This document shows, piece after piece, positions 9,511 through 58,231 of a stretch of 64,000 bases of DNA (its first letter is position 1; every line of letters begins with the position of its first letter). The position numbers and the translations under genes were made by a program. The DNA lies in NCBI GenBank assembly GCA_020055645.1, contig CM034546.1:43090001-43154000 (forward strand). The letters run 5' to 3'. Below the pieces are notes generated by a model. The model was not told the DNA's origin. It was given only the letters and a program-made list of their open reading frames with translations, and made no database searches. This stretch comes from Tomocerus qinae (Eukaryota; Arthropoda; Collembola; Entomobryomorpha; Tomoceridae).

Positions 9511-11736
9511 ATGGCAGAGAGAGATTTCCGCCCAAAGAAAATAGTAAGAAATGAAGTCAACTGGAGAAAATGTGTCACCAAACGACTCAAAGCTTAAGGT
9601 ATTAGCCATAATAGTCTTAGGCCCATATTTTTAATAAACACTCTCACTCTAATCTCCACTCTTTGAGAGTGTAAGGTACGTATTGAGGTACCTTTCACTC
9701 TCGATAAAGTGCGTAAAAAGTGCGTGAGAGTGGGAGGCGAGTCATTAAAAATATGGGCCTTAGGTCTACCTTCTACCTAACTTAAGTAATGGTAGATTTT
9801 GTATTTTAAAGTCATTGATATTATCCCATATTTTAATTTGACTTCAGGGGTTCGACATTTACGCCATGATGGAGTGACTATCAAACCAAAGCGAACTTTT
9901 AATGATGATGACTGTCGACATCACTGTCGAAACGAAATTACCTATGAGGAGAAAAACTGGATATTCCAGAAGTTCAATAGATTGGCAAATCATGAGCTTC
10001 AAAACACTTATTTGCAAGGGTGTTTACCAGATGGAAATAATCAAGTAGGATATAAATTACGTTTAGCCGACAGAACAGCCTACGTTTGTCAAAAATACTT
10101 TCTTGGCATTCACGGTATAAAAATAACTCGGTTGCGACGGAAGGTACTTTCTAAAAAATTTCAACTATGTAAAATATTAAAAATTAGAATTTCTCATTTA
10201 AATTATAGTTTGTTTTAAATTATCAATCCTAAGGTATTAAGACCAGACCTAATGATCACAGATGGTAGAGGAAAACATGGACACCATAAAACTACTGAAG
10301 AGAATATACTTAACCAAGTAAGAAATTTCCTGAATGAGTTACCTTCAAGAGAAAGAAATCCGAATAAAAGGTATTTGGAATCCAACCAAACCATCAAATC
10401 TCTCTACAATAATTTTTTGGCAAGAAATCCAAACGCTAGAAATAACCAACCAATAATTCAGTATTGGCAATTCAGAAACATTTTCAATCATGAGTTTAAT
10501 ATCAGTTTTGGATTTCCCCGTTCTGATGTATGCAAAATTTGCGATCTGTTTCATGCCAAAATTACCGAAATTGGGGTGTATGGAAATGAAAATGAGGAAT
10601 TTGAAGTACGCTTAGCACAACAGTTTCATTGGTCGGAAGCGGAAGCTTTTATTTCAAGAATGAACAAGAATAACCTAGATGAATACGATGCATCTCATGC
10701 ATTTATCTGTTTCGACTACGAGAAAAATTTAGCCTTCCCAATAACGAATATAGGAAAAGAATTTTTCTTGCGACAGATGTGGCTATTTAACTTTTGTATC
10801 CATAATCTAAGAAACGGTGATTCATATATGTTTGTGTATCCTGAAAACTTTGCGAAGAAATCGTCGAATGAAACAGTTTCCTTCATAAAATATTATGTAG
10901 AAAATTTCGTGCCTGCCGAAGTGAGAAGCATTCACTTGTTTGCTGATAACAACTTTGGTCAAAATAAAAATCGCTATTTGATGACATACCTCATTAGTTT
11001 GGTACCTGAAAGATTCGATAATATATATTTCCACTTTCCACTACCTGGACATTCGCGCATGCAATGTGATGCAGATTTTGCTATTATCGAAAAGAAAAAG
11101 CGAAAGGTAGACCGAATACACTTTCCAATACAATGGGTAAACGTGATAAAGCAAGCTAGACCGGCAAACCCATTTAATGTATTTTACGTAGAACATTCAC
11201 CAACAAATGGATTGACACCTGATGGAACACCAATTGTCCCAGTATACAACTTCAAATCAGCACTTGATGATATTCTACGTCCTCCACAACACATAAACGA
11301 TATCAGAAGTCTGCATATCGACTTGACGAATAGAGGAATCAGAGTGAGAGTTAACCATGAAGTTGAGAACGGTACATGGAACCATTTTAACTTTCTAAAA
11401 CATGGCATTGATTACGGAATTTTGAAAACTAAAATCCAAACTGTGCAAAGAGCTTACAATGGTTATTTACCTATTTCGGCTGCTAAGTACGAAAACGTGC
11501 AGTATCTCTTAAGTAATATATTCTACGAGTCACTAGATTTTGACTCAGACGATGTCCCGGAAGAAGTTTTGAACATCATTGAAGAATTTCCTCCAGACCC
11601 TACCTTCAACTTCGATTTTCTGGATTTAGAACTTCAAATTCAGAACGCTGCTTATGTAGAAAATCCCCCGGCGTACTTAATAAATATAATTGAGGAATTC
11701 CCAGACCCTAATTTCGAAATCTCATTCCTTAATTAG
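9511..11736 (+). pseudogene. DDE-transposase-like gene with in-frame stop in exon 1
   Basis: Three exons: 9511-9598, 9847-10143 and 10234-11736. Exon 1 (MAERDFRPKK...) joins exon 2 in phase through the donor at 9599, but its codon at 9595-9597 is TAA. Exons 2 and 3 are open for about 600 codons. Seen: a basic N-terminal part with HLRHDG and DGRGKHGHH, a CKICDLFHAK cysteine motif, CFDYEKN, and the block ADNNFGQNKNRY followed by PGHSRMQCD. This resembles the DNCxGQNKN / GHS..D pattern of TE-derived proteins widespread in invertebrate genomes with a presumed RNase-H-like DDE core; I cannot name the superfamily. An AATAAA lies at about 11936. Terminal repeats of its own were not found, so it may be an old transposon body or a derived gene using a different first exon. 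Confidence 0.7.
9620..9759. mobile_element. Tourist/Harbinger-like MITE (140 bp)
   Basis: Perfect 16-bp inverted termini GGCCCATATTTTTAAT flanked by TTA on both sides (9617-9619 and 9760-9762), a 3-bp target duplication typical of PIF/Harbinger MITEs. The interior has ACTCTC/GAGAGT repeats in inverted order. It sits in intron 1 of the transposase-like gene. Confidence 0.85.
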
Positions 11737-13985: not shown

Positions 13986-15689
13986 ATGGCGAACGCCTTG
14001 GAGTGTCCAATTTGCCTTGAAGAGCCCAGCCCACCGATTTATCAGTGCACAAATGGGCATATTGTCTGTTCGACTTGCGAGTTGCAAATTTTGATATGTG
14101 GAATATGCCGGGAACGAATGCCAAAAAAACGTACACGGTGCCTAATGGCGGAACAGTTGATGGAGACTATCGTAAAATTGCGTATGTCGAAATCCAGAGA
14201 AAGGTAGCCGGGCTTTTGGGCTTTATTAAATATTTATTTTCTCGCAATAAATTACTTGAATTAAATTACAAAATAATTGTGTATTTTAATGTGGTGTAAC
14301 TTATGTAGGCTGATGAACTACTGTAGTTTGCTCGGATTGAATAATATCCTGCTTTGCAAGGAAAACGTTCGTAGGGATCAAATTGTTGGCCATGTAAAGC
14401 AGCATCATCTAAGTGGAGTGAATGGCAGCAAAGCAGATGTCATTCAAGAATTGAAAGACTTCGAAAGCCCTCAGAGTTGGTTTCCTGTATATTTCGAGGC
14501 TTATGATGAAACATTTTTCTTGTTGAGTGGCATAAGAAAAGACAGTGATCATGATTCCAGTCTGGTCGTGTCTTGGAAGTGTGCAATTATTGGGGACGAT
14601 TTGGCAGCTGAAAAATATTGTGTTCAACTTCGTTTGACAAGCAATGACAAGGTGAGTTAGCCACCCAAATAAAACACGAAAACTTAAATTATTTTACCAT
14701 AATTTTTATATCGGTTTTCAATGTATGATATTTTAATTCCTAAACTGTAATTTTTCTCTTTTATCATTTATATCAAATGGTTTTAACTTAATAGCTTATC
14801 CCCAAATATAATTTTCTTCGGGATGAAGTTGAAAGGTCATGGAGGTGTAATATTATGACTTTTGTTTACTTAGAATCTGAAATATCTATTCAACTGTTCA
14901 GTCTTTGGCATTGAAAACGGCGACCATCGAAGGAATGATACACATGTTTTGCTACCTTTATCCCAATTAAAACAATTTGGAAAATACAATTGGATAAATA
15001 AGCTGGAATGGACTATTAATGTTCAGATTGGGAAAAAATCCGAAAATGAAAATGGATTTCTTAAGATGTATAACACGGAAGTTCCTACAGCGAAAACTTT
15101 CCCTTACATACTTGCTAGCGAGGAGAGACCAAGTTGTTCTGTTAACTGCTTAATGGTTCAGACTGTTCAGACTGTGGGAAACGGGAAAGTATTTATGGAT
15201 TTGGAGTATGAAAAGAAATTAATAGGAAGACTTATAATTGAACTAAGATACGATGTCGTGCCGTTGACAGCTGAGAATTTTCGATGTCTTTGTACTGGCG
15301 AAAAAGGAATCAGCTACAAAGGGGGCCGCTTTTTCTTCATTTCGCCGCAGAACTACATGACGGGAGGATGTGTCACTAGGAATGATGGAAATGGAGACGA
15401 GAATATTTCTACAGTTTCTAGAGACGCAATTATGAAAGAAAAATGTTCTCTTAAGCACTATGACAGAGGCGTTTTATCAATGTATAACCGTGGAACAAAT
15501 AACATTAATTGCTCTGTATTTACAATCATATTGCAGCAAAAACCATGTTGGGACGGAAAATATGCAGTATTTGGCAAAGTGGTGGAGGGAATGAAAGTTT
15601 TAGATGATCTTGAAAACCTCCTGTCGTTATCCTATGGACTGAATGCAATGGACGAAAAAACTGTCATACAAAATTGCGGTGAAATATAA
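13986..15689 (+). CDS. RING / SIAH-like protein fused to a cyclophilin domain
   Basis: Three exons: 13986-14203, 14309-14651 and 14874-15689, 458 aa, phases consistent. Residues about 5-60 form a C3HC4 RING of SIAH type (CPICLE, QCTNGHIVC, ICGICRERMPKK). Residues about 75-245 match the paralogue at 18362 and read as a diverged SIAH/TRAF-like substrate domain (WFPVYFEAYDETFFLLSG, WKCAIIGDD); the usual SIAH zinc-finger cysteines are weak. Residues about 292-458 are a full-length cyclophilin fold (VFMDLEYEKKLIGRLIIEL, LTAENFRCLCTGEKG, WDGKYAVFGKV, NCGEI end). In CypA numbering R55, F60, Q63, F113, W121 and H126 are all replaced, so prolyl isomerase activity is unlikely. Probable role: a ubiquitin ligase with a peptide-binding tail (inference). 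The ATG was chosen because the paralogue starts at the same place. AATAAA at about 15735. Confidence 0.85.
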
Positions 15690-17409
15690 ACTGGAGAGAG
15701 GGTTATTTTTGAAAATCAATAATATATTTGCCTAAATAAATTTGTCATTTATAAAATAAATTATATAGTATAAAATGTATTGTCTATAACCTTGTATAGT
15801 CTTGTCTAAAGGCTCAAGGTATAAGTTTTGCTAAGTAATTGCTTAATTTACTTACGAACAAATCAAATTACAAATTGGTACAGTATTAAAGATATTACTT
15901 AAAACTACTTATTGAAATACAGAATAATAGAATTAATAAACTAGAAATTTAATAAAATAAATGAGAATAAAGGTGTATTATTAGAGTAATATTTGGTGGT
16001 ACATTTTTTAGTACCAATGGCATAAATCCTTTGCCCAAAACGCTTTTTCTATGTGCAGTTGTTATAATATATTAATAAATTAGCTAGAGAAGTAAATAGT
16101 AAACTCATTCGTAATTCCTAAATAATAAAAATGAGAACTTAGTTGTATGACCAGAAAAGTCACTCAACTACAGCGTACTCTTTCTCGGACAACTGTCGAA
16201 TGTGGTTCCTGGTTCGCAATTTAGCTATTCCTTCGACTTACTTGATAATAATATTATAAAACAAACCCTACGAAATACACGAATTGACCATGCACATTCT
16301 ATTTCCTTAACGCTTCCACATCCAAATGTGGCCCAATAATACCACGACGCCTTTATTTGCCCTTATCTCCGTTTCTTTCCACCGAATTACATCCAGGTTT
16401 CAGGTACCTGTCAGGAATCATGTTTTGCAACTTTTGAAAATTATTTGAGGTCATTTTGAAGATTTTATTAATTTTTATGGCTGAAAAACTAAAACGAAGT
16501 CATCGCTAACATAGCAGTATTGCCAGTATCTATTTTTTGAAAATTGAATCAAATCAGGGTTATTAAGTTGTGTATAACATAAAATCGGTGGTAAATCAGG
16601 TAAATGATATGGTTCTACGGTTACTGGTTATCCTACACAATTATAAGCATCATCATCAATGGTTTAATTGGTGAAAATTATCAATTGTTCCTGTTTCAAT
16701 TCAATTCCTTGTTTTAATTGATATATTCAATTTTGGTTTTCTAGCTTTCCATGATTTGGTTGTCACTCTATAAATCTTAAACTATATTATGTAAAATACA
16801 TATTGAGTCCGGTAGCAACGACTACCTATATAAAATATAATATCTGCCACCATAATGTATAGTAAACTCAATAGAGAAAATGACTACAAAAAGGCTGAAC
16901 AAGCTACGAAGAAAAGGATCTGTGTCCCTAAAATAATTTAAAAAATCCTTGAAATTGATTTAATGGGTCAATTTTAATGATAACCCTTAGAATATTTAAA
17001 AAGTCCATAATAATAATTTAAAGTGTCCCCACAATTGTTGATTTGGTAAATGTACTACTGATACTGACTACTTAATGCTATCTGCTGAACTGTTACCGTA
17101 TAAGAGCTTTCATTGCTCTCTTTCGCTTACTCTTAGAATTAAGTGGCATGCTTTTGACTTTTGACATTTGGAGAGAAACGAAAAATTGCGTTTAGAAACA
17201 ACTGCAACTGTATGCTTACATAAAATGCTTTTGAAAATAAGGAAACATCTAGTTATCAACTATGAAATATATCCCTATTTCCAAAATCAAAATTAGCCTA
17301 AAAACCACATAAAGTCGCGTATTAATTTTTTTGATATTTTGAGAAAAAAAATATTTTTATTGGATTTGGGGGGTTTATTCCCAATGCCCGCTTCAAATTG
17401 TTCGCAATT
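15690..17409. other. Gene-free stretch after the cyclophilin-fusion gene
   Basis: The first 130 bp resemble the 3' flank of the second RING gene (21650-21750), marking the tandem duplication. The rest is AT-rich with no supported gene. Confidence 0.5.
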
Positions 17410-18361: not shown

Positions 18362-21317
18362 ATGTCGCTGACCCCTGAGTGTCCAATTTGTTTTGAAGAG
18401 CTTATCCCACCGATATATCAGTGTCCAAATGGTCATATTGCCTGTTTGAATTGCTTAAAGCAAATTTTAATATGTGGAATTTGCCGGGCGCCACTGCCAA
18501 AAATACCAATACGGTGCCTAGCGGCGGAACAGTTGCCGAAGACTATCGCCAAACTGCGGCTGGCCATATCCAGAGAAAGGTAGTCAAGCTTTATTATTAA
18601 ATATTTACACGCAAAGAAATTTCTTGAACTGAATTACAAAATAATTATGTAGTGTGCTGAATTTAGGCTGCTGCATGCTGTGGGAGTTTGCTAAAGTTAC
18701 TTCCTTCCTCGTTGCCCCAGTTTTAGGTGAACTGGCCCGAAACCAGTTCAACAAGAAAAGTATAAGGTGATTTGGAGGTACGTATGCAGTAATTTGGTGA
18801 AAGGGGGGCAAAACTAAAAAGAATGTCAAAAAGTAAGAGTTATTTGTGCGTAGCGCGAAAATTGTTTTACAATTTGTGAAAGGGGGCGCTGCTCCTCCCC
18901 CCCGCCCCTACCTGGATACGTTCTTGGTGATTTGTTCTAATGACAAAAGTGAACATGTTATAATGTATAATGACAAAATGACAATTTATATGTTTATATA
19001 GATCTGTGTAGCTAAAACAAATTGTTTTCAGAAATAAAGGTTAACAATTAACTTGTACATATAATGTTAATAAACCCTAGAATTAATCAAAATATGGAAT
19101 ACAATATTCAAAAGTAATATTGGAATAGTTCACATTTGCTTTCGAACAGTTTACCTTCTGCCATTGGACCACCAGTTCAGCGGTATCTTTTTCATTGGAA
19201 CAAATCACGTTTTCCTTTGTAGACCAGTATCTCGGGCCAGTTCACCGTATACCAGGTTGGTTTTGGGACCGGAAACTAGTTCATCAAATATTGATTTGTT
19301 TTAGTGACAAAGACAAAAGCCACTTAATCTCCCGTCACAATTTTTGACTCGTTTCTGATCGTACCTAATTAAATATAAAATTGAGCAAACATTGCGAAAT
19401 GTGATGGGAGACAACAGGGGCAATAAATATATTATGGTTAATAGGTTAAGTAACTAAACTAAAGGCAACGTGAGAGGGGGCGACAATATTCCACTGCCTA
19501 AATTCAGCCGTGTAGTGTGATGTGTGATGATAAATATGATATAATTTATGCAGGCTGGTGAACTACTGTGACTTGCTCGGATTGACAGATATCCTGGATT
19601 GTAAAGAAAGTATTCGTAGGGACCAAATTGTTGGTCATATAAAGCAGCATGGTCTAAGTGGAGTGAATGGCTGCAAAGCAGAAGTCATTCAAGAATTGAA
19701 ACACTTCATAAGCCCTCAAAATTGGTTTCCTGTATTTTTCGAAGCTTATGATGAAACATTTTTCTTGCTGAGTGGCATAAGAAAAGACTGTGATCATGAT
19801 TCTAGTCTGGGCGTGTCTTGGAAGTGTGCAATTGTTGGGGATGATTTGGCAGCTAGAAATTATTGTGTTCAACTTCGTTTGACCAACAATGATAAGGTGA
19901 GATAGCTACCGTCAGAAAATGGTGACCTCAATATTCCGACTTTCTCAGACCTCCCCAGCATCAGTCACCTTGGCCGCGAGAGAAAAATCTTATGGTGGGG
20001 CACCTACATAACTGAGCTAATTTATCATAATCTTAACCTAATCTAATGATGGGGCGGGTCCACTGTACATTACGCCCCACCCCTGTGGGGCGCCATACCC
20101 AATATTAGGATGGGCAACTAAAATGCCCCTTGTATCTATGTATGTTATATGGGGTGTTCTGCCTCGCTAAAGTGATTGTACTGGGCGCAGGCCTCAAATA
20201 TGAATCTGGGACTGTTATGGAAAATCTACTATCCCAACAAAGTCAGGTTATCCAAGCTACTATCGTATGACTATATGCAGTACGAAGGTACGCATAGGGA
20301 GACCCTTGTAATGTAATTGCGTGTTCGTGCTTAACCTTTTGTTTTAATTCCACATTTACCACTCAAACACTCGCCATTAAACAGCCCTCGGCCATTTCAC
20401 CCAGCCAAAGACTCGAACTGGCAGTGGAAGCACACGTTGAATAGTCAGACGTCTGATTTCTGCACCAAGCCAATGTGGCAGGTGTAAAATGCCCCTTATT
20501 ACCCACCTAATGTCACATATCTAGTCAACTATACCTATTTTTATCGATTTGTGACTCAGAAATATTAATTGTTTACCTATCTTTACTCTACATAAACATA
20601 AAGTGGGGCATGCGCATATGGGATTCTTTCATTCACTATTCTTGAATAAATGTTTGTATCTATGTCCGTAATATTTTGTAATTAATGAGTAAGGGTAATA
20701 TTTTGTAATTAATGAGCAAGGACTAGGCTATCAGTACTGAGTCCAATCAACGGTCTATGAAATTCGGGCCAATGCGCAGTCGCTAGAAATTTACTGATTT
20801 CAACATTTTCTAGCACACTTTATGTGCTAGGATTCAACTAGTTACAAATATTTTATCGAAATAAGTTTTACCTACTTCAAAGTACGATTTCCTCTTAGAG
20901 TGTGTGTGAATTCCCTCTTTTCTCACCTCGTTCTAACTCAGCCCGTAATCACAATCACTATGAACATTTTTTTGGGAAATGTAGTAAAAATGTGTAATAT
21001 GGCTTCTGTTTTCTTAGAATCTGAAATATTTGTTCAACTGTTCCGTCTTTGGAATTGAAAACCACGGCCATGCAAAGAAGGATTCGCAAGTCTTGGTCCC
21101 TCTTTCCCAATTAAAACAATTTGGAAAATACAATTGGACAAATAAGCTGGAATGGACTATTAATGTTCAGATTGGGAAAAAATCCGAAAATGAAAATGGA
21201 TTTCTGAAGATATACAGAACGGTAGTTCCTAAAGTGCTAACTTATTCTCCTTTTAGAGTTGCTGGCGAGATTCCAAATTCACTTCATACTGTTCAGATTC
21301 AGGGTAAAATGGGTTAG
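18362..21317 (+). CDS. RING / SIAH-like paralogue without cyclophilin domain
   Basis: Three exons: 18362-18579, 19554-19896 and 21018-21317, 286 aa. Exons 1 and 2 have exactly the same lengths and phases as in the gene at 13986. RING: CPICFEE, QCPNGHIAC, ICGICRAPLPK. The SIAH/TRAF-like part is strongly conserved (LLGLTDI, IKQHGLSGVNGCKAEV, FFEAYDETFFLLSG, KYNWTNKLEWTINVQIGKK). Exon 3 stops at 21317, where the paralogue continues into cyclophilin. Downstream, 21420-21490 still resembles the first cyclophilin strands (VVMDLAYENQ) and 21595-21650 the terminal NCGE region, so the domain was lost by internal deletion. Introns are much longer than in the paralogue (974 and 1121 bp) and hold a MITE and a SINE. 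It is probably a functional RING protein. Confidence 0.8.
18775..18926. mobile_element. hAT-like MITE, family CACGTATC...GGATACGTG, copy 2
   Basis: Starts GAGGTACGTATGCAG and ends CCTACCTGGATACGTTCTTG. Flanked by a perfect 8-bp direct repeat GTGATTTG (18767-18774 and 18927-18934). G-rich left part, C-rich right part. It lies in intron 1 of the second RING gene. Confidence 0.85.
20384..20484 (-). repeat. tRNA-derived SINE-like fragment
   Basis: Read on the minus strand it contains GCCACATTGGCTTGGTG (A-box-like) and, about 60 nt later, AGTTCGAGTCT (B-box-like), the spacing of a tRNA-type RNA polymerase III promoter. The same 17-nt head occurs at 44297-44313. It is not a foldable intact tRNA. 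It lies in intron 2 of the second RING gene. Confidence 0.55.
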
Positions 21318-21660
21318 AACTAAACAGTACATGATGTCACTAATTATATTTAGTATTCTGATGCACCGTTTACTGGTCTGAATATTTTTTATGGTTTTTC
21401 AGCAAATTCGAAGTGGACATTCATGAAAGTGGTTATGGACTTGGCTTATGAAAACCAGTTACTTATAGCAAAACTTATAATTGAAATATTGGGATGGCCG
21501 AGTCTTTGGTGATAATGGAGGAAAAGATAATATGAAAATTTTAATGAAAACGTTAATTTCGTTATTCAATGGATGGATTAAAATGGAAAAAAATCTTCCA
21601 TGCAAAATTGTGGTGAAGGTGAAATATAAATGGAATTTAAAAAAATCAATAATATATTTG
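21318..21660 (+). pseudogene. Remnant of the lost cyclophilin domain
   Basis: Around 21420-21490 the sequence encodes a stretch resembling VFMDLEYEKKLIGRLIIEL of the paralogue, and 21595-21650 matches its terminal CAAAATTGYGGTGAA. The middle of the domain is missing and the frame is broken. Confidence 0.65.
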
Positions 21661-31384: not shown

Positions 31385-34300
31385 TCAGGAAGAAACGCTA
31401 GGAGTTACATTTGAAAGCTCCAAAGTCGCAGTTGATGCTTTAGTATCTTTTTGCTTTAGCTGAAAACTGGCACCAATGTCTTTGTATATCGCCAACAATG
31501 TGGTTTTAAACATCGTACTCATTGTTACATAAACAAAAAATGATGTCAAACAACTCAAGAATTCAAGATCAATGAACAATTGTACAAGTGGGGCAATGCA
31601 CTCAATATTAAAATCACCTATTAGGGCATTTGTAACTGTATAAATTCCAAAAGGCAATTCAGTCACTAAAAAAATTATTTGAAAGAGTAAAAGCATTTTG
31701 TTTGTTTTATCGTTTGATGTGCTGCAACTATTATTGTTGGAACATTTTGCGCTTGACATAGATTGTCTCCGCCAGTATTTGTTAGTCTGAATGAGATCCA
31801 ACATCAGCCCAATGGTAAAAATCGTTGACAGCAAACAGGGTATCCACTTTTCAACCAATCTATAAGCATAAAGTAAATAACCAAATTTATAATTTAAATT
31901 CTGCTTAAATTTTTATTTAAAATAAAAGAATTTCTAGCCACATCTGGATTATACGTTAATTATTATATTATTATGTTGTCTATTATTTCCGACATAAAAA
32001 TAAAGTTTTTCTGCAACGGTGCAGTTTTTCTACTTTTGTATCTTTTTATTTAGAAAATACATTTTCGTGCTTACGTGAAACTTATTTCTACCAATTCCTC
32101 GTATTCACTGTTGATATTATAATTCAATACATCTGGAAATTTTTGCTTTTTTAGAAATATCTCTATTTTCTCCGGTGTCCCATCTTCAATATGTGCCACA
32201 CTCGCAAGCAAGAAGAACACTATTTGATATAAAACCACGCCAATACAGATAATTAAAATTGACCACTTTGCATTCCTGTTGGTTAAGAATGATTTGCTTT
32301 TTAAAGGAAATTTAATTCCGAAGCATTTCCATCCAGCTACCAATGTGGTCAGGTATAACGACAGGGTGTGGAACATCTGTAAATTAAACAAAATAATTAA
32401 TAGTAGCAAACGAATTAAAAAAAATAATTTATAGTGTAGACAAGGAAAGGTAAGCCATTTGCAATATTTTACCTGTGATTATATTATTAAGTGTACTACC
32501 ATAAATCCTCCAAATAACGCCCTCGGCCTATTCTGGGACAATATGTTATTTTCCCCCGGTGTTAATTAGATATCTGATGTTTACTAGAGACCCGGCGTAT
32601 TCGCTGGAACTCAGCTTATCATTTTGTATTGGTACTCTAAATAATATTTTTGAATATCGCGGTATTATCTAATATGCTTTACCCCTTTTGGAGACCCGGC
32701 GTTTATTAGAGACCCGGCGTTTATTAGAGACGTGGCTTTCTTTTGAGGCCGACTATTATTAGAGGATTTACGGTATTATAAATCGTATCCCTTTTAATGA
32801 TAAATAATAATTATACAGTTATTAGCAACTGTAAATAGTTATTTCCTAGACCTTAATTGATTCCAAAAACTTTATTATTATCCCTCAGTGTACTGTACAG
32901 GGTTATTATAATTGCACCTAGGTATACAATCGCTCCCACCACCATCACAGCTCTCCGCAGAATGGGTAATACTAATTCATAAAGCCCTTCAACATTTATA
33001 AAGAACGTTTTTTAAATCCAATTACTCTCACGATATTTAAATTGGTAGAAAAATATTTTTGCATTAAAAAAGTATATCATCTCGTAATGATGCAAAAGAT
33101 CTCAATTTTCATTTGGTGGTGAATAATTGACATCTCTATCTCAAATTTTAAAAAGGTTTAAAATTCAATTTATAATAATATATTAAAATCCTTAAAATCT
33201 TTTTTGGCTTTTAATAGTCCCAGGCTAGATACGAATTTGCTTTAAAAAAGTTAAAAGGGAATATGATAGCCAGAGTAATTTTTCGTTTCCATGAATACTA
33301 ATACATGTTAATAGTTCGTTAGTAAAACAGCAAAAGTAGTACTGATAAGGAGAAAAGAGTGTTGACCAAAAAGTACTTTTGGTGTGTTGGGATTTTAATT
33401 TAACAATTTAGGAGTGCATCCACTACTTCCACCCCTTTTAGCAGACTGAACTCTGCATCGTCTATTGCTTATATGTACATAGCAAATTTTTCATAGTAGT
33501 TATTTTTATAATATAATTTTGTAAATCGAATTCTCTAAATACATTTCCTTACGTAAAAAATCCAATTCAGCTGCGTCTTCACCAACAACTGTTTGTAAGT
33601 CCGTTTATCTCCAAAATGCTTCCTATGGATTAGAAGGCTGCTACGTACAAGCCCAAGCATCGAATATAAAAAGTCGCTAACAGCTATCACTGCCAAAATT
33701 ATATTTATAGGGTTGATCATATTTTTCCTTGTTAGAACAATCAAGTTGATAATGTTTGTCAGGCAACCAAGGAAACAGATTATTCCTAACAAATAACTGC
33801 GGCTATTATGGTAGGTTATCCAAATATTCTGCCATAGTTCTCCACAGTAATCGTATGGTTCTAAAATTAATAAAAATATCATTGATCATTGTTATTCGTA
33901 ATTATTATGCAGTCTTTTAAAAATCTTTGCTTGTAAATTTTACCTTTTACACAGGAAAATGTAGTTGAATTGGAGTCAGACTTTTCTCTTACACAACGTG
34001 CTAACGGGGAATCAGTTTTGTTATCTAAAAGTATTTGTTCTGTCTTCGTGGAAAAAGTTTCCAAATTTTGATTGCATCGGTACTTAAGAGAAATGTATGG
34101 GATTTCAAAGTTTATTTTACAATAGAAATTAAAATCATCTGCTTTCTTTTTATATCCATATTCTTCAACGTAAGAAATGTCCTAAATATAAAAATTGAAC
34201 ATGCTTAGTTAATTTACAATTTGTTAAAACTTTAAAACTTAGATAATATTTAGGCAATGTTGCTTACCTCAGACAGTTCATCAACAGCTGTGGTTGTCAC

Positions 34301-52681: not shown

Positions 52682-54886
52682 TTAACGATCTATTTCTCCA
52701 AAAAAAGTAAGGCCACGGTAGTCGTGCTGTGGGGTAATTTGCAAATAATAGGTTCCCTGAGGTGCAGGCTCTCTGTAAAAAAATTGTTTTGTTTCTTTAT
52801 TGGTGTTAAAAATGTTATGAATGATCCGAGGAGGAAAATGAAACTACGCATACCCATGTTGGAGTACAAATTCCCCAAATGTCGCTTTCTCAACTGTGTT
52901 TTTGTCGAAATCCTGCTGCAGCAGTTCACCGTAATTTTTAGATTTATACGCCATTATTTTATCGTTCAGAATTGACATAGCATAAAATACGTAAGCTAAG
53001 TTGTGGTTACAGAGTGCTGTAAAATAATTTTTTGTAAATAACAAAATTTAAAAAATAAAAATCTTTGGTTTTTAAGTTTTTACCACAAACTATTTCTTTA
53101 TTGTTGTATTTAGAAACTATTTACCTTCAGTTGTGTATCGACCTCTGCAGTGAAGATGGGTTTTGATAAAATCTCGATTTATTAATCGGTTCAATAAACC
53201 CGAGAATGGTAAAGATGTAAACCATTCTGAACAGATTCAGATAAATGTATTAATAATGGTCATTCTTAATAACGATGTATTTTCTCTAGTACAATTTATA
53301 ATTTTTTGGCATATCTCACCCATGTCATATCGCGTGCAATTGTAGTAAGGTTGATATTTGCTATCCATTCCTCCCCCATTAGGAAAAAAGTCAACATGGC
53401 CCAAACGATCACTAGTTCCATAACCAGCTGCATCTGTGTGGTAAACATCCACAAATTTTGCGTCTACCCGATTCAACTTTTTCAATGAGTGTTCAGACCT
53501 AAACTGTCCTTCTTTTGGAGGATCCAATGCTAAATCATCATTAAAAATTGAAGACATCAGTTTCATTTCCATTTTCTACATGAAAGTGAAATTATTTGTA
53601 TTTAAAATTATTTTACTAATCTTTATGCAGTTATTATTATGTTATCATTATGTAATTATTTTACTAACCTGTGATTCTTCCCAAGAGTGCGCTGTGGTTA
53701 CCTATTTTTCCAAGAGTACTTCCAATATGCGCAGCTATATGGCTGCCTACCCCGAATCCTATAATGTGTATGTCCCCTATGCTTCGAATTTTTCCCTCTT
53801 TTCTTAGAAATTGGATAAACTCAACGGTACGATCTGCTACCATTGGAGCATTGTCCAATGCATCCATTTCCATCCAATCGCACAATTTTATGTAATCCCA
53901 TGCTTTATCTGTACGAACAACTCCTGATAGGCCTCTCCAATCCACACATATAATTTGGTACTTCTCGTCTGGATACTTATCCATGCGTAACCGATAAGCT
54001 GAATCAAAAATAACATAGCTTTATCAAATCACTACCATAATTAGATATATTATAGTCATCTAAGTCTACGTTATACTGAGTCTTATTTACTGCATACCTG
54101 CCACCATACGCTTTGAAAACGTGCTATCGCAAGATTGAAAAAATCCTGGAATAATGAATTTATAAGGGATCTCGTTTGATAGATTAGCACGATTTAATCC
54201 GTGGAGATGGCCCGTTTCGATCGTCAGCTCATGGATACCAAATCTAAAATTAAAAATATTTCACCTTCTTGAACGTGTACCGTATTTTCACTATATTTAA
54301 TTGGAAGGAAAAGAAAATCACTTTCTTCAAACTTTATCTGGAATTTACTGTCTTCATTAGTATTGTGACATTCATGACATCGATAAGATTTTATATTCTC
54401 AATTATAAAAAGACAAGAATTTCAAAAGCATAATTTTTTACTTAAACATAATTTTCATCTTTCCGTTTTCTTATTTATACTTGGAATTGATTTTAGGGTA
54501 AGAATATAGTGTGGAATAAATATAAGCAAAAAGAATTGCTTTATGAAAGAGAAATGTAAATTTTATTTTTTAATCTTATTTGACAAAAACTTACGTATTG
54601 TCTGGGTAATACACAAACGAAACATCATCATTGCCTTCCTTAGGATTTGTTTGTGCAAGATCAGATACGAGTGGTACCCTCTGATTCCCTATTAGTGTAA
54701 TTTATTTTCTGCTTATATGTAAGTACCTCAATGTAGTAATAGTGTAAAAAATATAAATTGTTAAAACGTACAGGTAAGTTCATAATATAATCGTTTACCT
54801 CCTTTGTCTACTTCATTGTTGTCTCTTTCAGTTACTGCAGCTCGTATAATAACATACAGAAAGAATATCCACAATAGAAACTTCAT
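52682..54886 (-). CDS. Secreted pancreatic-lipase-family pseudoenzyme
   Basis: Eight exons on the minus strand: 54886-54799, 54688-54595, 54243-54098, 53998-53669, 53529-53320, 53142-53125, 53016-52854, 52772-52682; 379 aa. Signal peptide about 1-18. The lipase fold is clear: KFIIPGFFQS, IICVDWRG, HIIGFGVGSHIAAH, FVDVYHTD, GHVDFFPNGG, CNHNLAYVFY and a PQGTYYLQITP tail. The nucleophile elbow GxSxG reads GFGVG, so the catalytic Ser is Gly192; Asp222 (LDPP) and His300 (CNH) remain. It is probably non-catalytic, as in yolk proteins of this superfamily (family knowledge), perhaps a binding or storage protein (inference). The 18-nt exon 53125-53142 is needed to keep the frame. The neighbouring lipase gene has exons of matching layout. 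Confidence 0.85.
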
Positions 54887-56166
54887 GTCTTTAAATGATG
54901 GTGTTGTATCGATTTTCTATTAGGAACAACTGACTAATTCGTTACCATCGGGTGTTAACCAGAGGATTACTCTCATTTAAAAATATTGCTTTTGCATATA
55001 GGCACTTTTTAATAATTATATCTATACTACGTAATATCAAATGGTAACTGCTAAGTACAAAGATAAATCTCGAATGAATTGAATATCTCAATATGGAATG
55101 ATTTCATTTCCCAAAAACATTTAATGCAAACGAAAGCGGTGATAATTAAATAGGCTACGTGATGTCAATGTGTCCAGAAATGGAACTTAATCGTTATGTG
55201 CATACAATAACTCCACTTGAATGAAACAAAATGCATCGTTTTGTTACATTCATAAACATTTTTTGTCAAACTTATCACAAGTAAGCTTATCAAATTAAAT
55301 GTCAAGTTAGTTCAGGAAATTAATTTTAATGCCAATGAAGTGAATCATGTCCTACTTAACAAAGTTAAGATTACTTATTCAAACGTGTACGAAATAGTAT
55401 GTAAGAAGACCAGTATTCATTTTATTCTATACATAACATTAAAGTCAATTGAAATGCAACAACTATATCTGTAGACAATATTTACCATATAAGTTTCGTA
55501 AAAATGCGGTCATTGATTTTGTGAACCTTTAAAAAAAATTTTCAACTTTTTCACTGCTGTTGCATTTATTTGTTTTTATTATGTTGCTTATAAGTAAATA
55601 TACATAGTTATAATAAATTGATCAATGTTATCAAATAAGGTTATTTAAGTACAAAGTATACTAAGTTCTTATATACTCATAATAATAATCAATGATTTCA
55701 ATGCAAGTTTCTTCAACGAGGATCTGTAATACATGTACTTTACACCATACGACATTTAAAAGGTCAATATGCTTAATTATATTTGCTGCATGTATGAATT
55801 TTGATACAGTTGCATGAAATAGATAAGTGGAGTTCTGCGTATTATTAATGTATTGAACCCTGAACTGCTGCATTGCTAAAATTTAAAAGGAAAGAAACTC
55901 TTGTTTTGTATTTTCTACTTCCACTACAACTTTTTCACTAATGTATAACCCAGTTTTCAATATTCATTAATTAATAAACAAACAATAATTGTATTATTTA
56001 CTTCATGCCTTAAGCCTTGTAATGTTAGTATTATAATATGTATTATTATAATTGTATAACTATTATTACCGCATACCAATTAAAATTCCAATATAATAAT
56101 ATTATGTATTAGTTTCCAACAATATTTAGTAAGTCAAGCGGCGTAATTGTCGAAGACTTTTCAATT
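54887..56166. other. Intergenic region between the two lipase genes
   Basis: AT-rich; contains the promoter side of the first lipase gene and the 3' flank of the second. Nothing further recognised. Confidence 0.5.
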
Positions 56167-58231
56167 TCAATAACAATTGCCTTCCTTGTCGATTCTCAAG
56201 TAATATTCCCCAGATTCTCTACAATATCAAAATATATTTTCCCAGTAAATTATATAATGGACTTAGTTTTCAAATAAAACTGTAGCACAAGGGATTTAAA
56301 AATTATTACGTGACTCGTGGGTTTGCATTTATATACTCTCCAAAAACAGCAGATTCAGTGCACCAATAGCCAAGAGGGGATATGTAATAAGGATAGTTTT
56401 TGCATTTGTAGCCTTCCATTGATTCATACGGCTTGGTAATGGACATAGAATAGGCTTTATAGGCATAATTGTGCAAGCATACATGACTATATCCTGTAAA
56501 TATTTAAGTGTTTATTAGTTAGGGTAAACCTGAATTAAATTCCATTTGCACAAAATTGCTTTTGAAAATCAATCAGAACATACCTGGGATTACTCCTTCC
56601 CAGTAACAAGGATGTTTAAATGATATTGTTGTCAGATATAGGTTTGAACCCCCGTTGACAAAAAAATCTATATGGCCACATACTTTATCCGAGCCAAAAG
56701 CCTCACCCAAAGGAAATGAGTCGGCACCGTGTGTTATTTCAACATACGAAGTGTTATAGTCTGTGTGAATGACATCCACAAATTTAGCATCGTCTTTATT
56801 CAAATGTATGTCACGGGTAATTAATGGTCCAGCGGGGTCAAGGCCTGAATTTAAAAACACATAAAAAATAACAATAAAGAACAAAAAATAAAATATGCAA
56901 TATTTTCAAATTGTTTATCAAAAATTAATTTGTAGGCATCGATATGGTTTTTTTATACTTGAAATATAGATACTGTATTTAAATACTGTATTACAAATTG
57001 ACAATTTCGTGCATTTAAAAATTGTACCAGTTACTCTTGCCAAAGAATGGCCTCCAGATTTTTGTTTGACAAATTTCCCAGTTAAACCACAAATGTGAGC
57101 TCCTAAACTATGTCCAATGCAATGAACATCATCCAGACTTTTAATGTAGCCGTTATCTCGGACGAACAAAAGAAATTTAGCAACCCTTTCACCAATAGGC
57201 TCCAACAGTTTTACAACACGATCGTATTCTTGATAGTTACGATCTCTTTGGTTTCCTGACATCACCGCCCATCCAACTGATATTATATTTACGTCTTTGA
57301 AAACTGGATCAAATTTTCCTCGAGTTGCATCCATTTTCTCCCTGTAAGCTGTAACACATTTCATTAATAATTTTGTGTTTTAAGAATGTTATGCAATCAG
57401 GATTAGTGTGTGCGTTTATTACATGTAAAACTAAATAAGATATATGACACAAATTCATTAGCTACCTCTGACCAGTTCTGTGGTGAACTGGCTTCTTCCA
57501 CTCTCCAGGTAACCATGAATAAGAATCTTGTAAGGCTTGTCTTTCTGAAGACTTGAAGTTATTAAACTTTTTGTGCTATTGAACTCTATTAATTCAGAAT
57601 AGTCATCATCCCTTGAAGAATTAAAATAAATATCATGCAAATTCAGTTAAGACAATTAAGTGTGTATCATTTTAAATTAGTACTACTTAAGACTAATCCG
57701 TTTGGTTTATTTTTTGTAAATAAAAGGATTTAAATATTTATTATTACCAGTGCCCTGGATAGTACCAATATTTTATTTGGTTTAGTAAATGCTTTAGGTA
57801 ATCAGGATCGCTTTGATCTGGTTCCTGGCTCACGTATTGTAAATGTGGGCGTGGAATCCAATTAGTTTCCTCTATTAGGAGCATTTTAGAATTTTTAATC
57901 ATTAAAATTAGACAACAAATAAAAATTATTGCGTTTTTAAATCTAAGTACAAAATGCTGATAATATTTCAGCATAAATTGAAATAATATTGCCCAGTGAC
58001 CTATTTTCGATTTAAGCAGACATTAACAACCATTTAAGGAAAGTACATCATAAAATATTTATATGTGTATTATGTACCATACATTAATTGCCCAATTATT
58101 TTGTTTAAATTTAACAATTTTAAATACCATTACCCGTACCCCATTCCTGTTGGACTTGGACGTTATTTGATGTTGCTTTGCTTAGTAGAAAACATATAGA
58201 AAAAACAATTGTAAATATCTTGAAATCCATA
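56167..58231 (-). CDS. Secreted pancreatic-lipase-family protein, triad intact, frameshift in exon 1
   Basis: Seven exons on the minus strand: 58231-58134, 57871-57748, 57611-57466, 57348-57028, 56844-56584, 56493-56310, 56218-56167; about 394 aa if the frame is continuous. Triad: GHSLG nucleophile elbow (VHCIGHSLGAHICG), GLDPAGP aspartate, CLHNYAYKAY histidine. Other family blocks: KILIHGYLESGRS, FVDVIHTDYN, GHIDFFVNGG, and a final ESGEYYLRID. Its 146-nt exon has the same length as the matching exon of the neighbouring gene. Exon 1 encodes a signal-like start (MDFKIFTIVF), but a run of seven T (plus strand 58200-58206) shifts the frame by one, so the ATG frame meets TAA. This is either a sequencing or assembly error or a recent lesion. 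Otherwise it is likely an active extracellular lipase or phospholipase. Confidence 0.8.

What the first reader, a model, noticed from the sequence alone, without database searches (positions are those of the whole stretch)
13986..15689. RING + SIAH-like + cyclophilin in one protein
A C3HC4 RING and a SIAH/TRAF-like region continue, in one exon and one frame, into a complete cyclophilin-length domain. I know of no standard family with this order (SIAH proteins end after the substrate domain; known U-box/cyclophilin fusions use a different E3 module). It could be a lineage-specific ubiquitin ligase that recruits targets through a prolyl-peptide-binding tail.
Basis: partly seen in the sequence, partly recalled or inferred. 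Interest (0 to 1): 0.85.

Follow-up and report, generated by a model that had tools for sequence, protein, structure and literature searches.

The report
Ubiquitin-ligase family with altered cyclophilin tail
An arthropod-like genome carries a family of probable ubiquitin-ligase genes that end in a cyclophilin domain whose enzyme site appears lost and has become the most variable part of that domain, as if it had turned into a recognition surface.

Summary
Window 13986-15689 (+) encodes, in three exons, a 458-aa protein with a Sina-type RING, one SIAH-like zinc finger, a divergent SIAH/TRAF-like region and a full-length cyclophilin domain. It is not a one-off: of 17 related regions modelled in the same genome, 13 have the SIAH-like plus cyclophilin order (12 with a RING found, 9 with no stop or frameshift in the model), all on one chromosome. 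Both halves form single clades, which fits one fusion followed by amplification. Twelve sister copies keep an intron between the SIAH-like and cyclophilin parts; the window copy lacks it. dN/dS is below 0.55 in every segment where it could be computed. The 'prolyl-peptide tail' reading is not supported: all 13 copies keep only 2-3 of 13 canonical active-site residues. That former active-site groove is the most variable part of the domain (p about 0.0005), beyond sites that ordinarily vary. Best reading: RING E3s that recruit substrates through a dead, diversified cyclophilin groove, working like primate TRIMCyp but built on a SIAH chassis and multiplied. An anti-pathogen role is plausible and untested. 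No RNA data and no other arthropod genome were available.

The parts
13986..14203 (+). Exon 1: start codon, Sina-type RING (aa 7-41 = 14004-14108) and the stretch after it; donor GT at 14204, phase 2
   Evidence: intron 1 in phase 2 in the sister copies where it was modelled
14309..14651 (+). Exon 2: SIAH-like zinc finger 2 (C78, C89, H101, H105 = 14322-14405) and first half of the SIAH/TRAF-like region; donor GT at 14652, phase 0
   Evidence: ligands invariant in 8 of 8 aligned copies
14874..15689 (+). Exon 3: rest of the SIAH/TRAF-like region, linker (about aa 276-290) and entire cyclophilin domain, with stop codon; the intron 3 of sister copies is missing here
15183..15686 (+). Cyclophilin domain (aa 291-458; Pfam 295-455)
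   Evidence: Pro_isomerase 4.5e-28; PDB cyclophilin D 9.4e-32
15336..15338 (+). Codon 342 (Phe), the position of the CypA catalytic Arg55; highest posterior for diversifying selection of 449 codons (0.91)
15735..15740 (+). AATAAA, possible polyadenylation signal, 45 bases after the stop codon
   Evidence: motif match only
18362..21512 (+). Tandem duplicate (A2): exons 18362-18579, 19554-19896 and 21018-21303 keep RING and SIAH-like parts; after a 99-bp intron a short frame follows (about 36 aa by eye, of which 21 codons align to the cyclophilin), the rest of the cyclophilin being deleted

Best explanation
This is one member of a multigene family of RING ubiquitin ligases of SIAH/SINA descent that gained a cyclophilin exon at the 3' end, most simply once, and was then amplified along one chromosome. 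SHOWN by sequence: domain order, family, one clade for each half, purifying selection on all three domains, loss of the canonical PPIase active-site residues, and concentration of variation in the former active-site groove. INFERRED: the RING recruits an E2 and transfers ubiquitin; the cyclophilin is catalytically dead and, held on a conserved scaffold, is the substrate-recognition module; the remodelled groove (near-constant N/Q60, Y61 and W122, with variable positions 55, 57-59, 63, 101, 103, 121 and 125, CypA numbering) gives each copy its own target; bound targets are ubiquitinated and degraded. The targets are most likely foreign or fast-evolving proteins (viruses, mobile elements or parasites), as with TRIM5-CypA.
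For: Gene model and domains. Of 17 regions modelled, 13 have SIAH-like plus Cyp and 9 have the full order with no stop or frameshift in the model. RING and ZnF2 ligands invariant in the 8 copies aligned; R42 after the last RING Cys, a position recalled as the RING 'linchpin', is kept in 7 of those 8. Fusion Cyp clade 96/91; fusion RING-SIAH clade 97/98 against 5 SIAH-only genes and human SIAH1. dN/dS of the Cyp domain 0.14-0.44 in nine pairs, including recent pairs B/F 0.32, D/E 0.27 and H/I 0.33; M0 omega 0.306 over 449 codons. Active site: 2-3 of 13 residues kept in 13 of 13 copies. Groove entropy 1.62 against 0.90 for the domain, permutation p 0.0005, and against 1.18 for sites that vary in ordinary cyclophilins, p 0.002. 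The only 2 of 449 codons with P(beta>alpha) above 0.8 are CypA positions 55 and 58. A leafhopper Sina mediates degradation of a viral phosphoprotein (abstract of PMC12121772). TRIMCyp is a known antiretroviral fusion of TRIM5 and CypA (abstracts).
Against: No RNA, protein or activity data. The groove as a whole has omega about 0.6-0.7, not above 1, so part of its variation may be relaxed constraint; the 9-site subset with ratio 1.48 was chosen after seeing the data, and the entropy threshold for 'ordinarily variable' sites (1.4) was my choice. With 8 clean copies, one per close pair, the comparison with ordinarily variable sites weakens to p 0.017. dS near or above 1 in the older pairs makes rates rough. 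A/A2 gives 0.50-0.53, including 0.52 on the 21 cyclophilin codons left. Copy G has an altered RING spacing and lacks R42; 4 of the 13 copies carry frame defects. In one tree the long, diverged non-fusion cyclophilin L073 sits next to the fusions (92/91), so the history before the fusion is unsure. No target is known.
Confidence: 0.55

Rival explanations
1. Relaxed or passenger domain: the cyclophilin lost its enzyme function and its groove drifts; the domain is kept only as a folded stabilising or dimerising tail, and substrates bind the SIAH-like region.
For: All 13 copies have lost most of the catalytic set; groove omega about 0.6-0.7 can come from relaxed constraint; tandem copy A2 lost most of its cyclophilin and keeps an open RING-SIAH frame.
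Against: Groove sites vary more than sites that ordinarily vary in cyclophilins (p 0.002; 0.017 with 8 clean copies). Several groove sites carry new near-constant residues: W122 in 12 of 13, Y61 in 11 of 13, N or Q at 60 in 13 of 13, which is unlike drift. The rest of the domain is strongly constrained (ratio 0.25).
Confidence: 0.25
2. One reading: a working cyclophilin that recruits targets through prolyl peptides, perhaps isomerising them.
For: Full-length cyclophilin domain by sequence.
Against: R55 is replaced in 12 of 13 copies and F60, M61, Q63, Q111, W121 and H126 in 13 of 13; in the window copy 8 of 8 of positions 55, 60, 61, 63, 111, 113, 121 and 126 are replaced (residue list recalled).
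Confidence: 0.05
3. Self-directed role: a fast-evolving germline, mating or genome-conflict E3 family (for example spermatogenesis) rather than immunity.
For: A Siah ligase has been reported in moth spermatogenesis (title and start of abstract of PMC11759277, listing); clustered, fast-evolving copy-number families also mark reproductive conflict (general knowledge).
Against: No expression data either way; nothing here points to the germline specifically.
Confidence: 0.12
4. Gene-model artefact: two neighbouring genes (SIAH-like and cyclophilin) read as one.
For: No transcript evidence; twelve copies have an intron at the junction, so separate transcription is conceivable. A separate promoter or start for the cyclophilin was not tested.
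Against: Same order and orientation in 13 loci spread over about 2.7 Mb, with one a further 10.5 Mb away; one continuous open frame across the junction in the window copy; no stop between the halves in the spliced models of 9 copies.
Confidence: 0.03

Closest known systems
TRIM5-CypA (TRIMCyp) of primates and rodents
   Same: RING E3 with a C-terminal CypA domain as recognition module; independently born E3-cyclophilin fusions; TRIMCyp specificity shifts by changes in the cyclophilin domain (abstract of PMC2924388); rodent Trim5 clusters also amplify (abstract of PMC6677749).
   Different: SIAH chassis with one zinc finger instead of B-box and coiled coil (no B-box found); many copies in one genome; canonical active-site residues mostly lost in all 13 copies; the cyclophilin exon has an intron in front in the sister copies.
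SIAH/SINA RING E3 ligases
   Same: Sina_RING over cut-off; RING, zinc finger and SBD-like region in collinear order (full-length hhalign to SIAH1 98.6%); intron 1 (phase 2) and intron 2 (phase 0) shared with the SIAH-only genes L081 and L084 of this genome (models of the others tried were partial, less clear or different).
   Different: First zinc finger missing; SBD too divergent for the Sina_TRAF model; extra cyclophilin.
PPIL2/CYC4 (U-box plus cyclophilin)
   Same: Ubiquitin-ligase module and cyclophilin in one protein (PPIL2 described as a U-box E3 of the cyclophilin family in the start of the abstract of PMC5833831, listing).
   Different: U-box, not RING. A PPIL2-like gene of this genome may be L072, a separate locus (11 of 13 active-site residues kept; the PPIL2 label is recalled).
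RanBP2/Nup358 cyclophilin tail
   Same: Cyclophilin domain in a protein named an E3 SUMO ligase (PDB names; its C-terminal place is in the start of an abstract, PMC3930637, listing).
   Different: Large nucleoporin (same abstract); no RING (recalled). The Ran_BP1 search for its gene in this genome did not complete.

Membership tests
SIAH/SINA E3 ligases | Sina-type C3HC4 RING | tested here: met
   PF21362 4e-11, 43.3 bits against cut-off 29.3; 8 of 8 aligned copies match at E up to 0.01
SIAH/SINA E3 ligases | Two SIAH-type zinc fingers | tested here: not met
   Only the second-finger ligands (C78, C89, H101, H105) are present. SIAH-only relatives show a first-finger motif by eye, with Sina_ZnF matches under the cut-off
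SIAH/SINA E3 ligases | TRAF-like substrate-binding domain | tested here: inconclusive
   Sina_TRAF 0.052, under cut-off; SBD-only hhalign to SIAH1 0.4% and 0.8% probability; full length collinear 98.6%, probably driven by the RING
Cyclophilin (fold family) | Pro_isomerase domain over its length | tested here: met
   4.5e-28, profile 2-157 of 159
Cyclophilin PPIase (active enzyme) | 13 active-site residues including R55, F60, M61, Q63, Q111, F113, W121, H126 (list recalled) | tested here: not met
   2-3 of 13 kept in 13 of 13 fusion copies; activity itself not testable here
[quoted passage not shown]
   RING present; no B-box among Pfam matches at E up to 1; coiled coil not tested
TRIMCyp | C-terminal CypA-class domain from a retroposed CypA copy | tested here: inconclusive
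   CypA-class domain in a single coding exon. Nearest by identity is L001 in 9 of 11 copies (tied with L035 in H; L035 nearer in O); the Cyp exon of L001 also follows a phase-1 intron (by eye), so exon capture is as likely as retroposition; tree unresolved
PPIL2 | U-box | tested here: not met
   Pfam lists Sina_RING and weaker RING models (including zf-RING_UBOX at 0.4, under its cut-off); no U-box model
Active RING E3 | Ubiquitin transfer with an E2 | not testable with these tools
   needs an in vitro assay

The most novel reading that the evidence does not exclude
A multigene, diversifying recognition system in an invertebrate: a SIAH-derived ubiquitin ligase captured a cyclophilin exon, lost its enzyme site and turned the groove into a copy-specific recognition surface against pathogens or mobile elements, a convergent and amplified counterpart of primate TRIMCyp.
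Probability: 0.3. Interest if true: 0.9.

Novelty: new variant of a known kind. Interest (0 to 1): 0.7.

Why it matters
Cyclophilin capture by RING ligases is known from mammals as a route to antiviral proteins. An independent capture on a SIAH chassis in an arthropod, kept in many copies with the former active site as the most variable surface, would show that a cyclophilin groove can be re-used as a diversifying recognition site without its enzyme activity, and would give a natural panel of groove variants for finding what such domains can bind.

Tried and rejected
AlphaFold2 on exon 3 alone (no alignment) gave mean pLDDT 29.5 and was discarded. SBD-only profile comparison to SIAH1 failed. 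The viral-contig scan with the RING-SIAH alignment found no relative (21 pattern matches, none confirmed). The cyclophilin donor was not resolved: L001 is nearest by identity in 9 of 11 copies compared, ties with L035 in H, and is behind L035 in O; AU tests reject neither L001 (p 0.503), L034 (0.431) nor L035 (0.192), and L008 sat next to the fusions with weak support 56/78. In the larger tree the long row L073 sat next to them (92/91). Exact intron loss in the window copy was considered as proof of a spliced fused mRNA and not claimed: by eye the junction differs from spliced A2 by about two codons. A cyclosporin decoy was rejected: W121, recalled as needed for cyclosporin binding, is lost in 13 of 13 copies. 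The all-pairs dN/dS summary stopped with an error and is not used. Organism: the COX1-like nuclear insert reads like a springtail to me from memory; not tested, and no name is claimed.

Rows dropped: the entropy comparison used 11 of 13 fusion copies (B and E left out as near-copies of F and D) and 7 of 17 other rows (6 of 16 non-fusion cyclophilin loci of this genome, plus human CypD). All 17 were scored: L073 keeps 2 of 12, L008 6 of 13 and L076 8 of 13 active-site residues, so other diverged cyclophilins exist in this genome. The tree left out B and E and 8 of the 16 non-fusion loci. Alignment A1 holds 8 of the 13 fusion copies. One search used 5 SIAH-only genes of the dozens hit.

Full report
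WHAT IS THERE. The window lies at C1:43090001-43154000 of an unnamed 334-Mb genome in 115 contigs. Joining 13986-14203, 14309-14651 and 14874-15689 gives an open frame of 458 aa with GT/AG introns. Pfam finds Sina_RING at aa 7-41 (4e-11) and Pro_isomerase at aa 295-455 (4.5e-28), both over their cut-offs, and Sina_TRAF at aa 136-192 below its cut-off (0.052). The PDB sequence search gives cyclophilin D at 9.4e-32.

A FAMILY, NOT A ONE-OFF. Searches of the own genome with the two halves of the protein and with Pro_isomerase show relatives of both halves side by side on C1, mostly at 43.1-44.2 Mb, with one at 41.5 Mb and one at 54.7 Mb. I modelled 17 regions with a splice-aware alignment. Thirteen have the SIAH-like region followed by cyclophilin (A = window copy, B, D, E, F, G, H, I, J, M, N, O, P); a RING was found in 12 of them (for J none in the stretch held). 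Nine of the 17 (A, D, E, F, G, H, M, N, P) have the whole order with no stop or frameshift in the aligned model. B, I, J and O carry frame defects. Four more are decayed: C, K, L and the window's own tandem duplicate A2 at 18362-21512, which keeps RING and SIAH-like parts but only a short piece of cyclophilin.

GENE STRUCTURE AND ORIGIN. The sister copies have four exons: phase-2 intron 1, phase-0 intron 2, and intron 3 between the SIAH-like and cyclophilin parts (12 of the 12 full sister copies; modelled phase 1 in 11, phase 0 with odd edges in M). Reading through intron 3 hits stops in 13 of 13 copies printed, A2 included, so it is not coding. The window copy alone lacks it. The SIAH-only genes L081 and L084 share introns 1 and 2 in phase and place; other SIAH-only models were partial, less clear or different. 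Fusion cyclophilins form one clade (96/91) and fusion RING-SIAH parts form one clade among the rows given (97/98), which fits one fusion followed by amplification. By identity the nearest cyclophilin is L001 on C2 in 9 of 11 copies (47-56% over the 11; tied with L035 in H, behind it in O). L001 has, by eye, a signal-peptide-like first exon, a phase-1 intron and the cyclophilin in one exon. This suggests exon capture, but trees do not settle the donor: AU tests reject none of the three tried, L008 is adjacent with weak support, and the long row L073 is adjacent in the larger tree.

SELECTION. In ten chosen pairs, dN/dS is 0.14-0.44 for the cyclophilin in nine and 0.52 on the 21 codons left in A/A2; for the other segments it is 0.14-0.53 wherever dS could be computed (B/F had dS 0 in two segments). 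A single-ratio codon model gives omega 0.306 over 449 codons of 13 copies. All three domains are therefore under purifying selection in one reading frame, which is hard to square with an unused cyclophilin or with two unrelated genes.

THE RING AND SIAH PARTS. C7, C10, C21, H25, C28, C31, C38 and C41, and the zinc-finger ligands C78, C89, H101 and H105, are invariant in the 8 copies aligned (8 of 13 were given). The profile of these 8 hits the SIAH1 RING in the PDB (2.7e-13). SIAH zinc finger 1 is missing here; SIAH-only relatives show its motif by eye, with Sina_ZnF under its cut-off. Full-length hhalign to human SIAH1 is collinear (98.6%), but the SBD alone is not recognised (0.4% and 0.8%), so I call aa 131-275 SIAH-like by position and relationship, not as a proven TRAF fold. 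What I take for the canonical sina, with a clear Sina_TRAF match, lies on C3.

THE CYCLOPHILIN LOOKS LIKE A PSEUDO-ENZYME WITH A HYPERVARIABLE GROOVE. Of 13 canonical active-site residues (list recalled), the 13 fusion copies keep 2 or 3. Of 16 non-fusion cyclophilin loci, 11 keep 10-13, two are fragments (5 of 5 and 4 of 4), and L076 (8), L008 (6) and L073 (2 of 12) are diverged too. R55 is replaced in 12 of 13 copies, by six different residues (F, T, Y, S, D, K). Mean site entropy in the groove is 1.62 against 0.90 for the domain (permutation p 0.0005), and against 0.15 for the same sites in 7 ordinary cyclophilins. Sites that ordinarily vary among cyclophilins reach only 1.18 in the fusions (p 0.002; p 0.017 with 8 clean copies). 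In the codon analysis the only two of 449 codons with posterior above 0.8 for beta>alpha are CypA positions 55 (0.91) and 58 (0.89). Against a simple arms-race claim: the 13 groove sites together have omega about 0.6-0.7 and the rest of the domain about 0.2-0.25, so relaxed constraint may contribute. Some groove positions carry new near-constant residues (W122 in 12 of 13, Y61 in 11 of 13, N or Q at 60 in 13 of 13), which points to a rebuilt site rather than decay.

MECHANISM. Shown by sequence: architecture, family, selection, active-site loss and groove variability. Inferred: E2-dependent ubiquitin transfer by the RING, substrate binding by the cyclophilin groove, degradation of the target. 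The comparison is TRIMCyp: TRIM5 plus CypA, born independently in several mammals, with specificity changed by mutations in the cyclophilin domain (abstracts of PMC6677749 and PMC2924388; passages of PMC2279257). In a leafhopper, Sina itself mediates degradation of a viral phosphoprotein and limits viroplasm formation (abstract of PMC12121772). An anti-pathogen function is thus plausible but not shown.

NOVELTY. Paper searches with SIAH, seven in absentia, cyclophilin, RING, TRIMCyp, invertebrate, springtail and related terms (capped listings with titles and starts of abstracts, apart from the papers named above) showed no RING-SIAH-cyclophilin protein in the rows listed. The library holds only open-licence papers, and no other arthropod genome could be searched, so 'not in print' and 'lineage-specific' are not proven. 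I rate it a new variant of a known kind (E3-cyclophilin fusion).

Noticed in passing
window 22710-49134 (-): Five repeated sets of similar open frames look like a tandem array of 7TM receptor genes; Pfam was run on pieces of one set, and two match 7TM_GPCR_Srw (3.9e-12 at 31388-31912; 1.7e-8 at 33538-33885).
   Followed up: partly
window 53667-57379 (-): Two lipase (PF00151) gene pieces (1.1e-8 at 53667-54020 and 7.7e-12 at 56921-57379).
   Followed up: partly
window 10219-11733 (+): 505-aa open frame with DUF7869 (1.1e-8), possibly a mobile-element ORF, 2.2 kb upstream of the gene.
   Followed up: no
L008 (C1:95479588-95480247): Another cyclophilin that seems to follow other coding exons (to my eye CFAP97/Hemingway-like, from memory), with a partly lost active site (6 of 13).
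   Followed up: no
genome-wide: Many RING-SIAH-like hits without a cyclophilin beside them (92 matches over C1-C5 in all, fusion copies included), alongside a likely canonical sina on C3.
   Followed up: partly
G000:C1:36670928-36672268 (L089): A COX1 frame covering the whole Pfam model reads open with the invertebrate mitochondrial code inside chromosome C1: a recent mitochondrial insert or an assembly join.
   Followed up: partly
window 13986-15689 against sister copies: The window copy lacks intron 3, which 12 sister copies and its tandem duplicate keep; how it was lost is not clear.
   Followed up: partly
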